This document shows, in pieces, positions 23,236 through 36,269 of a DNA stretch of 64,000 nucleotides; the stretch's first letter is position 1, and each line of letters begins with the position of its first letter. Under the pieces are notes generated by a model. That model saw only the letters and a list, made by a program, of their open reading frames with translations, was not told the origin of the DNA and ran no database searches. The stretch lies in the NCBI GenBank assembly GCA_001874265.1, contig MPDD01000010.1, positions 1 through 64,000 of the forward strand, read 5' to 3'. The position numbers were made by a program, and so were the translations under genes. This stretch comes from Bacteroidetes bacterium MedPE-SWsnd-G1. GTDB taxonomy: Bacteria; Bacteroidota; Bacteroidia; Flavobacteriales; Flavobacteriaceae.

Positions 23236-24663
23236 TTAGTAAGTCAATTTCTTAGTAAGATCCTCTACGTATTTTCGGAATTGTTTGTCCGTTTCTGTAA
23301 GATTATCAACTGTCTTACATGCATGCAATACAGTGGCATGATCTCGTTTACCAATTTGAGAACCAATACTTGCTAAAGAAGCTTTGGTCATTCGCTTGGC
23401 AAAAAACATCGCCAATTGGCGTGCTTGAACAATATGTCTCTTTCTGGTTTTGGACTGAAGTGTTGCAACATCCAAATCGAAATAACTCGAGACTACTTTT
23501 TGAATTTGATCAATAGATACTTCTCTCTTTGTATTTTTAACAAATTTATCTACAATTTGCTTCGTTAAAGAAAGCGTGAACTCTTTTCTATTAAATGATG
23601 CTTGCGCAATCATGGATACCAAAACACCTTCTAATTCTCTAACATTAGATTTGATGTTTTTAGCAATATATTCCACTATTTCATCCGGCATCTCTACACC
23701 ATCTCTGTACAATTTGTTTTGTAAGATTGAAACACGTGTTTCATAATCAGGCGCTTGTAATTCAGCAGAAAGTCCCCATTTAAATCTAGACAACAAGCGT
23801 TGTTCAATATCTTGCATATCTACTGGTGCTTTATCGGAAGTCAAAATAACCTGCTTACCGTTTTGATGTAAATGATTAAATATATGAAAGAATACATCTT
23901 GAGTTCCAGTTTTACCTGACAAGAACTGCACATCATCAATAATTAACACATCAATCATCTGATAGAAATGAATAAAATCATTTCTTGTATTCGATTTTAC
24001 AGAATCAATAAACTGCTGTGTAAATCTTTCTGAAGAAATATACAATACTGTTTTATCTGGATATTTATCTTTTATTTCAACACCAATAGCATGAGATAGA
24101 TGTGTTTTACCTAATCCAACTCCTCCATATATAAGCAAAGGATTAAAAGATGTTCCTCCAGGTTTGTTTGCCACAGCCATACTTGCTGATCGTGCCAACC
24201 TATTAGAATCTCCTTCTACAAAACTGTCGAAGTTATAATTTGGATTTAATTGCGACTCAATTTTAACCTTCTGAATTCCTGGAATTACAAAAGGGTTTTT
24301 TAATTCTCTTTTATTAATATCTAATGGAACCGTAACACCTTGAGGATTTAATGGCTTTCTATTAGAACTTGGAATTTTAACTGTATGTGGTTTTGTGCTA
24401 CTATACGTATTTTCCATACGCACATCATATATCAATTTGGCATCGGAACCCAATTCTCTAACCAATGCAACTCTTAATAACTTAATATAATGTTCTTCTA
24501 ACCATTCATAAAAAAACTTACTAGGAACTTGAATCGTTAAAGAATCTCCAGAAATTTTAATCGGTTTGATCGGTTCAAACCATGTTTTATATGCTTGGGG
24601 TTTTATATTGTCTTTTATAAAAGACAGACATTCGTTCCAAACTGAAATGGCAGTTTTAGTCAT
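23236..24663 (-). CDS. dnaA: Chromosomal replication initiator protein DnaA
   Basis: 475 residues with all four domains: N-terminal DnaB/DiaA-contact domain (VWNECLSFIKDNI), a linker at about 85-145, the AAA+ domain with Walker A GGVGLGKTHL (Lys186) and Walker B VLIIDDVQF (Asp243-Asp244), and the C-terminal HTH with the DnaA-box-binding signature GKRDHATVLHACKTV. It unwinds oriC. The neighbours are not the classical dnaN-recF set. One DnaA box lies in its upstream region (24743-24751), which may support autoregulation. Followed on the same strand by the phosphatase and rsmI-like genes. Confidence 0.97.
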   Translation of the reverse strand: MTKTAISVWNECLSFIKDNIKPQAYKTWFEPIKPIKISGDSLTIQVPSKFFYEWLEEHYIKLLRVALVRELGSDAKLIYDVRMENTYSSTKPHTVKIPSSNRKPLNPQGVTVPLDINKRELKNPFVIPGIQKVKIESQLNPNYNFDSFVEGDSNRLARSASMAVANKPGGTSFNPLLIYGGVGLGKTHLSHAIGVEIKDKYPDKTVLYISSERFTQQFIDSVKSNTRNDFIHFYQMIDVLIIDDVQFLSGKTGTQDVFFHIFNHLHQNGKQVILTSDKAPVDMQDIEQRLLSRFKWGLSAELQAPDYETRVSILQNKLYRDGVEMPDEIVEYIAKNIKSNVRELEGVLVSMIAQASFNRKEFTLSLTKQIVDKFVKNTKREVSIDQIQKVVSSYFDLDVATLQSKTRKRHIVQARQLAMFFAKRMTKASLASIGSQIGKRDHATVLHACKTVDNLTETDKQFRKYVEDLTKKLTY

Positions 24664-32908: not shown

Positions 32909-32973
32909 CAAAATCAACCGCTGACGAAAATCGTGAATGTTGGTTTTCTTACAACCATTATAAAAAAATAAAA
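32909..32973 (+). ncRNA. Structured 5' leader of rplS, probable L19 autoregulatory RNA
   Basis: The leader folds into a 9-bp helix AAAATCAAC/GTTGGTTTT (32910-32918 with 32939-32947, one G-U pair) enclosing a small hairpin ACGA-AAA-TCGT (32924-32934). The helix begins at the predicted TSS. I recall a described flavobacterial L19 ribosomal-protein leader, and position and size fit; I cannot check a covariance model. The likely role is feedback control of L19 synthesis. Confidence 0.65.
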
Positions 32974-33324
32974 ATGGCAGATTTAGTAAAGTTCGTACAA
33001 GACGAGTTTGTAACAAAAAACGAATTTCCTGAGTTTTCAGCAGGTGACACTATTACAGTGTATTACGAAATTAGAGAGGGAGATAAAAAACGTACACAGT
33101 TCTTTAGAGGTACTGTAATTCAACGTAAAGGTTCTGGTTCTTCAGAAACTTTTACAATCAGAAAAATGTCTGGAACAGTTGGAGTTGAGCGTATTTTCCC
33201 AATTAACTTACCAGCAATCCAAAAGATTGAAGTGAATAAGCAAGGTAAAGTAAGAAGAGCACGTATCTATTACTTTAGAGAACTTACAGGTAAGAAAGCA
33301 AGAATCAAAGAAGTTAGAAGATAA
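32974..33324 (+). CDS. rplS: 50S ribosomal protein L19
   Basis: 116 residues, the usual size. DTITVYYEIREGDKKRTQFFRGTVIQRKGSG, TFTIRKMSGTVGVERIFPINLP and ARIYYFRELTGKKARI (partly quoted) are characteristic. L19 sits at the 30S-50S interface and contributes to intersubunit bridges. It has its own strong promoter, a structured leader and a terminator at 33348-33378, so it forms a separate transcription unit from trmD. Confidence 0.97.
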   Translation: MADLVKFVQDEFVTKNEFPEFSAGDTITVYYEIREGDKKRTQFFRGTVIQRKGSGSSETFTIRKMSGTVGVERIFPINLPAIQKIEVNKQGKVRRARIYYFRELTGKKARIKEVRR

Positions 33325-33347
33325 TAAACTAACATCAAAAAGTTTAG

Positions 33348-33378
33348 ATCCCGATTTGCAATGCAAATCGGGATTTTT
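33348..33378 (+). terminator. Intrinsic terminator after rplS
   Basis: Long inverted repeat ATCCCGATTTGCA (33348-33360) and TGCAAATCGGGAT (33362-33374) followed by a T run. It ends the L19 transcript 23 bases after the stop codon. Confidence 0.9.
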
Positions 33379-33441
33379 AGTTTGTAAACATTTGTTAATA
33401 AACCCCGTTTATATCTTGTTGAGAACTAAATACTTGAATTT

Positions 33442-33473
33442 TTGGAAATTATTTAACGCATCTTATATATTTG
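33442..33473 (+). promoter_or_regulatory. Promoter of the structured RNA (TTG-N21-TATATTTG)
   Basis: TTG at 33442-33444, a 21-base spacer (slightly long) and TATATTTG at 33466-33473. The predicted TSS near 33479 coincides with the 5' strand of the first hairpin of the RNA, which supports both calls. Confidence 0.6.
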
Positions 33474-33479
33474 TAACAA

Positions 33480-33915
33480 GAAATAACTGAGAAGCATATT
33501 CAAAGTTATTCTTAAATGTTCTTGAACATCGTCTTTTAAATTTAGTAAAAGTATAGTCTATAAAGTATTTAGCATACCATTAGAGAATATATGAATTTAG
33601 AAGGCTGTTGGATAAAAGTGCTTAAAACGAGTAATGCTTATTAAAGGGTTACAACAAAGTTTTAGCATGGGATTCAACAATCGGAGAAACGAAGTAACGA
33701 AAGGTTATTTTGGATTGGTTGACATTGAAGTAGCAAGTTCATATATATCACTATAGAGGGGTTTAGAAATAAACAATCGTTGGGGATTTGAGCGGTGAAA
33801 GTTTACTATGAAAAAATTTCTAGGTGTGACACGAAAGTAGCACATATGTTGCAGAATGACTCCAGCAAAAAGCCATAGTAAACGAGCAGTCCTTTATTAT
33901 GGCTTTTGTTTTTTT
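33480..33915 (+). ncRNA. Structured RNA of about 435 nt, family not recognised
   Basis: A non-coding stretch between rplS and icd with a promoter at one end and an intrinsic terminator at the other. Helices found by eye: 33478-33488 with 33504-33513 (one bulged base); 33516-33520 with 33525-33529 (CUUG tetraloop); 33533-33538 with 33546-33551; a long arm 33606-33613 with 33672-33679 enclosing 33618-33628 with 33659-33668; 33692-33698 with 33704-33710; 33801-33810 with 33874-33883 (10 bp) enclosing 33824-33828 with 33841-33845, the latter with a GAAA loop. No open frame of length fits. I find no tmRNA tag or CCA end, no RNase P core motif and no SRP signature. It may be a free RNA or an attenuated leader of icd. 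Confidence 0.65.
33868..33915 (+). terminator. Strong intrinsic terminator of the structured RNA
   Basis: 15-bp stem AAAAGCCATAGTAAA (33868-33882) with TTTATTATGGCTTTT (33893-33907), one G-U pair, a 10-base loop and a tract of seven T (33909-33915). The left arm also pairs with 33801-33810, so the two folds exclude each other. Confidence 0.88.
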
Positions 33916-34007
33916 GCTCATCTCACAAAAAAAACATTACAATTTTTAAACATCATCAATAAAACGATCAATTAATCCTTAATTCAAACTAAAAATTTAA
34001 CGATTAA

Positions 34008-36269
<2,262 letters not shown>

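What the first reader, a model, noticed from the sequence alone, without database searches (positions are those of the whole stretch)
33480..33915. Structured ~435-nt RNA gene between rplS and icd, no family recognised
Seen directly: 436 bases free of open frames, a TAnnTTTG promoter box whose predicted TSS falls on the first hairpin, at least eight helices of 5-11 bp including a nested two-step arm (33606-33679), a CUUG and a GAAA tetraloop, and an intrinsic terminator of 15 bp. The signatures of tmRNA, RNase P and SRP RNA are absent by eye. The size is in the range of large bacterial RNAs. Either a new RNA gene or a new large leader of icd is implied.
Basis: seen in the sequence. Interest (0 to 1): 0.78.

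Follow-up and report, generated by a model that had tools for sequence, protein, structure and literature searches.

The report
Unreported large flavobacterial RNA gene
Between two housekeeping genes lies what looks like a gene for a large folded RNA, absent from the RNA catalogue searched, whose shape is kept in many genera of one bacterial family, so it very probably does a real but still unknown job.

Summary
Window 33480-33915 (+) looks like a stand-alone RNA gene with promoter and intrinsic terminator. It has no conserved reading frame and no Rfam 15 match. The same RNA lies between rplS and icd in 11 of 14 genomes of its genus and in Lutibacter and neighbours. A longer relative ('type A') was found in 122 of 397 Flavobacteriaceae genomes (80 of 237 genera), with no match outside the family in the order and phylum samples. 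Compensatory base changes are overwhelming: type A has 178 same-branch events against 10 or fewer in slid controls, the window's type 33 against 4 or fewer. Five type-A hairpins carry interchangeable GNRA loops. Both types share gene position, upstream control element and terminator stem. The icd-leader reading fails: icd usually has its own promoter box after the terminator, and the RNA stays where icd is displaced or missing. RNase P, tmRNA and a 6S candidate lie elsewhere in the genome. Best reading: a new family of large structured RNA acting in trans, probably as an RNP or self-assembling 'ornate' RNA. Function is inferred; no transcript was examined.

The parts
33380..33429 (+). Conserved upstream control element (palindrome like TTATTAACAATTGTTAATAA, then GTTYATA, then TGTTGA.A.CTAA)
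   Evidence: Degenerate match to the palindrome (up to 5 mismatches) in 38 of 42 rplS-downstream regions with an RNA call, 5 of 18 without one, 0 of 20 in genus g146 where the RNA is not seen; about 4% expected in shuffles
33439..33444 (+). -33 box (TTTTTG) of the RNA promoter
   Evidence: Seen in sequence; a TTTGG-like stretch stands at this place in Lutibacter-like relatives too; the Bacteroidota promoter consensus is recalled
33466..33473 (+). -7 box TATATTTG (TAnnTTTG) of the RNA promoter
   Evidence: TAnnTTTG at this place (49-54 nt before P2, or 158-161 where an extra domain is present) in 14 of 38 spacers; in 19 more the box found lies at the -33 place instead, in 5 none
33480..33915 (+). 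The RNA gene (predicted 5' end about 33480, 3' end in the terminator T-run)
   Evidence: Fold z -4.22; homologues in the same place
33482..33510 (+). P1, 5' hairpin
   Evidence: MFE; similar 5' hairpins in several genus relatives; Lutibacter has a longer 5' part
33516..33529 (+). P2, AUGUUC/GAACAU hairpin with CUUG (CAUG in some relatives) loop
   Evidence: in 21 of 60 genera an AAAG-[UAACGUU-like]-CUUU hairpin stands in this place
33531..33605 (+). P3, 13-bp stem 33531-33543 with 33593-33605, inner P3b 33551-33555 with 33588-33592, apical hairpin GUAUUUAGCAUAC 33565-33577
   Evidence: 11 of 13 P3 pairs and 5 of 5 P3b pairs carry changes on both sides over 41 distinct rows; 33 same-branch compensatory events over P2-P3 against 4 or fewer slid
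33606..33679 (+). P4, two-step arm: 33606-33613 with 33672-33679, 33619-33628 with 33659-33667, 33631-33635 with 33648-33652, and conserved ACAACAAAG linker
   Evidence: Outer two steps in the MFE, the innermost by eye; conserved sequence; not tested for covariation in this type
33683..33863 (+). P5, long-range helix GGAG 33683-33686 with CUCC 33860-33863, closing the 3' domain
   Evidence: Consensus fold of 11 genus sequences, not in the window's own MFE; recurs as GGAA/UUCC, GGGU/ACCC, GAAGUG/CACUUC, GAAACA/UGUUUC, GGGGU/ACCCC in relatives
33868..33915 (+). P6, intrinsic terminator AAAAGCCAU...AUGGCUUUUG plus T-run
   Evidence: Same outer stem sequence in most window-type and in type-A sequences; GCCAT..ATGGC pattern behind rplS in 39 of 60 genera, window included
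32974..33324 (+). rplS (L19), upstream neighbour, with its own terminator 33347-33379
34012..34019 (+). Separate TAAATTTG promoter box of icd
   Evidence: TAnnTTTG between terminator and icd in 34 of 38 spacers, 6.0 expected
   Evidence: displaced or not found in 7 of 34 type-A loci

Best explanation
A stand-alone gene for a large structured non-coding RNA, conserved through much of the family Flavobacteriaceae. Shown by computation: it has a conserved upstream control element and promoter-like boxes; it ends at its own terminator; it folds into a kept multi-domain structure (P2-P6, with a long-range P5 closing the 3' domain and, in type A, a long-range P3 enclosing a multi-hairpin domain with GNRA loops); it encodes no conserved peptide; and it can be found without either neighbouring gene. 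Inferred: it is made as a stable transcript and works in trans through its three-dimensional shape, as the RNA core of an RNP or as a self-assembling 'ornate' RNA, rather than through one exposed base-pairing seed. The regulator reading the upstream element is unknown.
For: Synteny: rplS upstream and icd downstream in all 10 genus relatives that carry it. Wider set: 38 contig stretches, 24 of them titled Lutibacter; the element lies between rplS and icd in the 49 of 54 loci that hold both genes (some genomes occur twice). Type A: model R2 hits 122 of 397 family genomes, one match each; rplS is on 33 of the 35 R2 loci fetched. Fold: type A has 62 of 105 pairs with both-side changes, 248 cells against 75.8 +/- 8.2 shuffled and 45 or fewer slid; 178 same-branch compensatory events against 10 or fewer slid, over 51 sequences. 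Window type: 91.6% of cells paired, 136 both-side cells against 43.2 shuffled and 32 or fewer slid; 33 events against 4 or fewer. GNRA loops in 45, 47, 43, 33 and 28 of 51 sequences at five type-A hairpins, with GAAA, GCAA and GUAA exchanging. Upstream element in 38 of 42 against 5 of 18. No Rfam match at threshold. Tandem duplication in G346.
Against: No transcript, 5' or 3' end was examined. My R-scape-like test is home-made and weak pair by pair: no pair on the plain 44-sequence alignment or on 19 type-A sequences, best E 0.003 on the model-fitted alignment, two pairs at E 0.027 and 0.087 on 51 type-A sequences. The canonical -7 box is at the window's place in only 14 of 38 spacers; in Lutibacter-like ones the -7 is unorthodox. 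A simple search for P5 across 39 genera does not discriminate (38 of 39 against 22.4 expected). Homology of window type and type A rests on position, upstream element, terminator stem and order of helices, not on alignable cores. The mechanism is by analogy only.
Confidence: 0.68

Rival explanations
1. A trans-acting base-pairing regulatory RNA whose conserved loops (UAACGUU, UACAUU, UUAGC, ACAACAAAG) pair with several mRNAs.
For: Intergenic gene, one match per genome, with terminator and conserved upstream control element; loop sequences UAACGUU (39 of 51) and UACAUU (43 of 51) are strongly kept in type A.
Against: Size, long-range helices, GNRA-rich multi-hairpin domains and very high covariation are unusual for base-pairing sRNAs (recalled); the conserved loops differ between window type and type A; no target search was made.
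Confidence: 0.18
2. A decoy RNA that sequesters a protein (in the way of 6S RNA for RNA polymerase or CsrB for CsrA).
For: Repeated hairpins with GNRA loops in type A; stand-alone gene with a control element.
Against: A 6S-Flavo candidate already exists elsewhere in the genome; no tandem array of one binding motif was noticed, though none was systematically searched for; no protein partner known.
Confidence: 0.1
3. A long cis-regulatory leader (attenuator or riboswitch) of icd.
For: It lies directly upstream of icd in most of the loci read.
Against: Terminator followed by a separate TAnnTTTG in 34 of 38 spacers; icd displaced or not found in 7 of 34 type-A loci with the RNA kept and not found behind L042; in genus g146 icd sits 221-295 nt behind rplS without a recognised RNA in 16 of 20 loci; two complete tandem copies in G346.
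Confidence: 0.03
4. A small mRNA or dual-function RNA encoding a short peptide.
For: Some sequences hold forward frames of up to 49 aa (window type) or 60 aa (type A).
Against: 12 of 44 and 5 of 51 sequences have no forward frame of 20 aa or more, and no start column is shared by more than 9 of 44 or 15 of 51.
Confidence: 0.03
5. A diverged housekeeping RNA (RNase P, tmRNA, 6S, SRP) that Rfam models miss.
For: Size in the range of tmRNA and RNase P.
Against: RNase P at G000:C34 (183.7 bits), tmRNA at G000:C59 (144.8 bits) and a 6S-Flavo candidate at G000:C3 (75.2 bits, below its cut-off of 85) exist elsewhere; no Rfam match at threshold here or, within the RNA, in 31 further loci. SRP RNA was not searched for genome-wide.
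Confidence: 0.01

Closest known systems
Large ornate bacterial RNAs OLE, ROOL, GOLLD (PMC12286853; search listing and passages seen)
   Same: Long, intricately folded non-coding RNAs with covariation-supported structure and poorly understood functions; those three form homo-oligomers.
   Different: No Rfam match; shorter (about 350-550 nt); sits at a fixed chromosomal housekeeping locus; different lineage. Oligomerisation untested here.
L19-Flavobacteria leader (RF03130) and Flavo-1 RNA (RF01705)
   Same: Flavobacterial RNAs found at or near rplS.
   Different: They lie upstream of rplS and are 29 and 76 model positions long; the RNA reported here lies downstream and matches neither.
Rfp sRNAs of Flavobacterium psychrophilum, e.g. 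Rfp18 (PMC9723704; outline, abstract and passages seen)
   Same: Stand-alone structured flavobacterial RNAs, found there with a transcript map.
   Different: Their genomic places are not in the passages seen. In genus g146 (presumed Flavobacterium, an inference) the rplS-icd spacer is too short to hold this RNA in 16 of 20 loci.
6S-Flavo RNA (RF01685)
   Same: Stand-alone flavobacterial non-coding RNA.
   Different: A candidate is present separately at G000:C3:9815-9942; 108 model positions; no match at this locus.

Membership tests
Any Rfam 15 family | Match at the curated gathering score | tested here: not met
   Window 33200-34200 and whole window, 20 loci and 14 loci, together 31 distinct loci: only the L19 leader and Flavo-1, both before rplS, pass. 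Below cut-off: rimP 39.6 of 47 bits in L093, RT-14 36.4 of 48.1 in L088, and a few weaker ones
RNase P RNA | Match to RF00010 at this locus | tested here: not met
   No match here; the genome's copy is at G000:C34:84942-85260
tmRNA | tRNA-like ends and tag frame | tested here: not met
   ARAGORN finds none in the window; the genome's copy is at G000:C59:6297-6690
6S RNA | Match to 6S models | tested here: not met
   No match here; candidate copy at G000:C3
OLE / ROOL / GOLLD | Match to their covariance models | tested here: not met
   All families of the Rfam copy were scanned, no match; that these three are in that copy is recalled
Large ornate RNA (as a way of working) | Ordered quaternary assembly | not testable with these tools
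   Needs cryo-EM, mass photometry or native gels
cis-regulatory leader of icd | Co-transcribed with and always upstream of icd | tested here: not met
   'Always upstream' not met: icd displaced or not found in 7 of 34 loci; a separate promoter box for icd in 34 of 38. Co-transcription itself not testable
Base-pairing sRNA | Conserved single-stranded seed with targets | not tested
   No target prediction was run
Stand-alone structured RNA gene | Terminator and covarying fold | tested here: met
Stand-alone structured RNA gene | Own promoter | tested here: inconclusive
   Clear TAnnTTTG -7 box in the window and 14 of 38 spacers at the same place; in 19 the box found is at the -33 place, 5 none; conserved upstream element supports a promoter
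Stand-alone structured RNA gene | Discrete transcript | not testable with these tools
   No transcript data on hand

The most novel reading that the evidence does not exclude
A previously undescribed class of large RNA, carried by much of the Flavobacteriaceae at one chromosomal place, which forms an RNP or RNA-only machine (possibly catalytic or self-assembling), with the window's genus and Lutibacter carrying a strongly remodelled form of the same machine.
Probability: 0.35. Interest if true: 0.92.

Novelty: categorically new. Interest (0 to 1): 0.83.

Why it matters
Large structured RNAs of bacteria are few, and those understood turned out to be ribozymes, RNP cores or self-assembling cages (recalled; the cages also PMC12286853, passages). 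One found in 80 of 237 sampled genera of a family, beside the same housekeeping genes in nearly all loci read, with dozens of compensatory base changes and a conserved upstream element, is a ready subject. It is one match per genome in type A and present in named culture-collection strains such as Lutibacter litoralis JCM 13034, L. flavus DSM 27993 and L. maritimus DSM 24450. It also suggests how a family-wide RNA can be missed if the best-studied genus lacks it.

Tried and rejected
Origin of replication: the upstream repeats (GTTNATANC) and the nearness of dnaA suggested that the spacer is oriC. dnaA is at window 23764-24249; it is within 17 kb of the RNA in 14 of 23 genomes where both places are known, but I picked several of those genomes because their RNA lay near the record's start, so that count is biased. 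Sampled GC skew (20 stretches of 20 kb in each of two genomes where RNA and dnaA are far apart) put the cumulative minimum near neither the RNA nor dnaA (in G104 the maximum lies nearer dnaA), so I dropped it; window skew shows no single switch at the locus. Resolution was coarse.

Phage or mobile origin: no match in phages (blastn) or viral contigs (exact pattern). icd leader, peptide, known housekeeping RNA: see rivals. Plain MAFFT plus RNAalifold on the 44 window-type sequences gave a poor structure and no significant pair; the model-fitted alignment repaired P2-P3 only. P5 by simple complementarity search is not discriminating, and own-versus-cross pairing is modest (mean 4.82 against 3.97; 41 of 44 against 63% reaching 4). 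The terminator pattern alone is not rare (5 on the + strand of the 64-kb window, the RNA's own included). On rechecking, my first promoter count (33 of 38 with a TAnnTTTG-like box before the RNA, 5.4 expected) mixes two places: 14 are at the window's -7 place, 19 at the -33 place. Weak hits set aside as chance: G003 25-nt and G047 34-nt blastn matches, G023, G380 and G399 with R1 (no rplS or icd), L040:3184-3275 (it is still a row, dropped), L169/G516 with R2 (not given). L155 and L157 were skipped. L104, which shares a type-A motif, was left out of the 19.

Full report
OBSERVATION. The + strand folds far better than dinucleotide shuffles (z -4.22, 0 of 100 as good), the - strand does not stand out (z -1.25, 10 of 100). 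Rfam 15 gives nothing at threshold here; the only match in the whole window is the L19-Flavobacteria leader at 32915-32942, before rplS.

RELATIVES OF THE SAME TYPE. By blastn the element is found in 11 of 14 genomes of the window's genus, the window's own included; G005 and G011 have no match and G003 only a 25-nt match. Of 46 genomes of other genera one (G047) has a 34-nt match, taken as chance. In all 10 relatives rplS lies before it and icd behind it on the same strand. Lengths from box to terminator are 414-442 nt in eight of the eleven and 546-551 nt in G002, G008 and G009, which carry an extra domain of about 120 nt before P2 (G010's start was taken at a too-early box). A covariance model of P2-P3 (R1) searched in 397 family genomes gave 10 genomes at E <= 0.1. 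Seven (G000, G006, G010, G083, G094, G304, G346) lie in the rplS-icd spacer; three (G023, G380, G399) are weak matches without these genes nearby. G346 has two complete tandem copies. A sequence pattern (P2 hairpin plus apical loop) found 38 stretches in the collection of 84,980 species genomes: 24 titled Lutibacter, one Urechidicola, one Gelidibacter, the rest named only to family or above; none in viral contigs. Lutibacter and Urechidicola are Flavobacteriaceae. In the 49 of 54 loci that hold both genes, the P2 pattern lies between rplS and icd (some genomes are counted twice, once named and once not). The other five (L042, L043, L045, L047, L049) miss one gene. L043 and L049 begin after rplS and L045 ends too soon, but L042 has rplS and no icd in the 6.85 kb behind the match and L047 none in 2.06 kb.

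FOLD OF THE WINDOW TYPE. On a model-fitted alignment of 45 matches (41 distinct; one, L040:3184-3275, a chance match), 91.6% of cells are standard pairs, 21 of 30 pairs have changes on both sides, and 136 cells do (shuffled mean 43.2, 0 of 500; slid 32 or fewer). Without that row, counting events along a tree (40 distinct sequences), 33 same-branch compensatory changes occur against 1-4 when partners are slid and a mean of 2.3 (maximum 10 in 200) when partners are permuted. A home-made R-scape-like test ranked three pairs first, all in P3, E 0.003, 0.084 and 0.2; on the plain alignment of 44 sequences it found none below 0.2. The alignment leans to the model's structure, which was derived from 11 of these sequences. 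The long-range P5 (GGAG with CUCC in the window) reappears as GGAA/UUCC, GGGU/ACCC, GGGGU/ACCCC, GAAGUG/CACUUC and GAAACA/UGUUUC, although the blind pairing score separates own from foreign partners only modestly, and P5 is not in the window's own minimum-energy fold.

THE WIDER FAMILY: TYPE A. Taking one genome from each of 60 genera by an rplS search, I looked at the DNA behind rplS. In 34 of 60 icd begins 543-940 nt after rplS, in 5 at 189-403 nt, in 3 at 1342-1478 nt, and in 18 it was not found. Of the 20 spacers of the first kind examined for frames, 16 hold no open stretch over 240 nt ahead of icd. In 39 of 60 (window included) the GCCAT...ATGGC terminator pattern lies within 1200 nt. 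The pattern itself occurs about once in 13 kb on the window's + strand, so five or six of 60 would be chance. Nineteen of these share an alignable RNA, type A. RNAalifold predicts 105 pairs, 61 with both-side changes. The pair count gives 96.0% of cells paired and 62 pairs with changes on both sides, 248 cells against 75.8 +/- 8.2 shuffled (0 of 500) and 45 or fewer slid. With 32 further sequences (51 in all; two of 34 loci skipped), 178 same-branch compensatory events occur against 5-10 slid and a permuted mean of 7.2 (maximum 20). The structure was derived from the same alignments. Five hairpins carry GNRA tetraloops in 45, 47, 43, 33 and 28 of 51 sequences, exchanging GAAA, GCAA and GUAA; the other consensus hairpin loops do not. 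The pairwise R-scape-like test is weaker: none below 0.3 with 19 sequences, two pairs at E 0.027 and 0.087 with 51.

DISTRIBUTION. A model of the P4 domain (R2) hits 122 of 397 genomes of the family, 80 of 237 genera, one match per genome. In 296 genomes of the order and 198 of the phylum the matches are all in the same family (7 and 3, each including the weak G516). How many of those samples lay outside the family was not shown, as most unmatched genomes were not listed, and large searches used stricter filters, so absences are soft. R2 does not find the window's type, nor several other forms with a similar P2 hairpin (UAACGUU-like loop, in 21 of 60 genera by my reading), so 122 is a lower bound. 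In genus g146 (20 loci read) icd sits 221-295 nt behind rplS in 16 and is not found in 4; no RNA of this kind is recognised by its motifs (L171 has a terminator-like pattern at 741).

ARE WINDOW TYPE AND TYPE A THE SAME GENE? They occupy the same place, and no genome of the 397 searched with both models has a trusted match to both. They share the order P2 hairpin, U-rich P3 strand, P4, long-range P5, terminator with the same outer stem AAAGCCAU/AUGGCUUU, and the same upstream element, TTATTAACAATTGTTAATAA, GTTYATA, TGTTGATATCTAA. A degenerate match to its palindrome is present in 38 of 42 rplS-downstream regions with an RNA call, 5 of 18 without (one of them, L094, ends at a contig edge and its genome has an R2 match elsewhere), and 0 of 20 in g146; about 4% is expected in shuffles. 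I hold them to be orthologous genes with a remodelled core; the cores do not align.

PROMOTERS AND INDEPENDENCE. A TAnnTTTG (or TAnnTTTAG) box stands between rplS and P2 in 33 of 38 window-type spacers (5.4 expected) and between terminator and icd in 34 of 38 (6.0 expected). Rechecked, the first count mixes two places: in 14 it is the window's -7 place, in 19 (18 Lutibacter-like and L008) it is the -33 place, followed some 20 nt on by an unorthodox TA-rich -7 such as TTATTTTAC. So the RNA's promoter is clear in the window's genus and less so in Lutibacter. Of 34 type-A loci, icd is within 420 nt of the terminator in 27, displaced by 708-813 nt in 5, and not found in 2; L138 lacks rplS upstream. 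No frame is conserved: 12 of 44 and 5 of 51 sequences have no forward frame of 20 aa or more. The genome has RNase P, tmRNA and a 6S-Flavo candidate below cut-off elsewhere. SRP RNA was not searched.

LITERATURE. Ten searches in the held open-access library (several listed only the top of long result lists) showed no title or abstract start reporting an RNA between rplS and icd. The F. psychrophilum transcript map (PMC9723704; outline and passages) tells of 85 new RNAs; the passages give no such location, and neither 'rplS' nor 'icd' occurs in its main text. The L19 leader paper (PMC7247131; passages) concerns leaders before ribosomal protein genes. The 2017 survey of candidate structured RNAs is not held and was not read; Rfam 15 is my only proxy for it. 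PMC5069720 and PMC4324048 were looked at by passages only and add nothing.

HOW IT MIGHT WORK. Shown: upstream control element, terminator, kept fold, no peptide, independence of the neighbours. Inferred: a trans-acting RNA working by shape. GNRA loops that exchange among themselves, long-range helices and conservation spread over helices and junctions are what one expects of an RNA with tertiary contacts, as in ribozymes, RNP cores or the self-assembling OLE, ROOL and GOLLD (PMC12286853; passages). Which of these it is cannot be told from sequence here.

VERDICT. Very probably a real family of large structured RNA that matches no family of Rfam 15. As an object it resembles the ornate RNAs, but it meets no membership test for them; what is new is the family.

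Noticed in passing
window 32915-32942 (+): L19-Flavobacteria ribosomal leader (RF03130, 45.1 bits) before rplS; ordinary.
   Followed up: no
L036 (genome G346), R1 matches at 1501-1599 and 2010-2107: Two complete tandem copies of the RNA about 509 nt apart between rplS and icd, diverged from each other.
   Followed up: partly
L003, L007, L009 (G009, G008, G002): Extra domain of about 120 nt, bounded by CTATCA...TGATAG, inserted between P1 and P2.
   Followed up: partly
L079:1265-1346, L082:2025-2168 (-), L085:1254-1343: Flavo-1 RNA (RF01705) lies before rplS in these three loci, so rplS is flanked by RNA elements on both sides.
   Followed up: no
window 23764-24249 (-): dnaA lies about 9.2 kb before the RNA; within 17 kb in 14 of 23 genomes where both places are known, a sample biased by my choice.
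   Followed up: yes
L138 (genome G133): Type-A RNA before icd but without rplS on the locus; a long frame on the opposite strand lies upstream.
   Followed up: partly
L042 (Flavobacteriaceae bacterium M2_metabat2_scaf2bin.147): Window-type RNA behind rplS with no icd in the following 6.85 kb.
   Followed up: partly
L097 (genome G061): An rplS-downstream RNA candidate with GTATTTAGCAT and a GCCCATG terminator, no icd found behind it: a possible intermediate form.
   Followed up: no
L083, L093, L127: Shorter candidate forms of the RNA with a P2-like hairpin, in genomes (G020, G067, G025) where model R2 gave no listed match.
   Followed up: partly
Lutibacter-like spacers such as L044, L051, L059: The RNA promoter seems to keep a TTTGG -33 box but an unorthodox -7 (TTATTTTAC-like).
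   Followed up: partly
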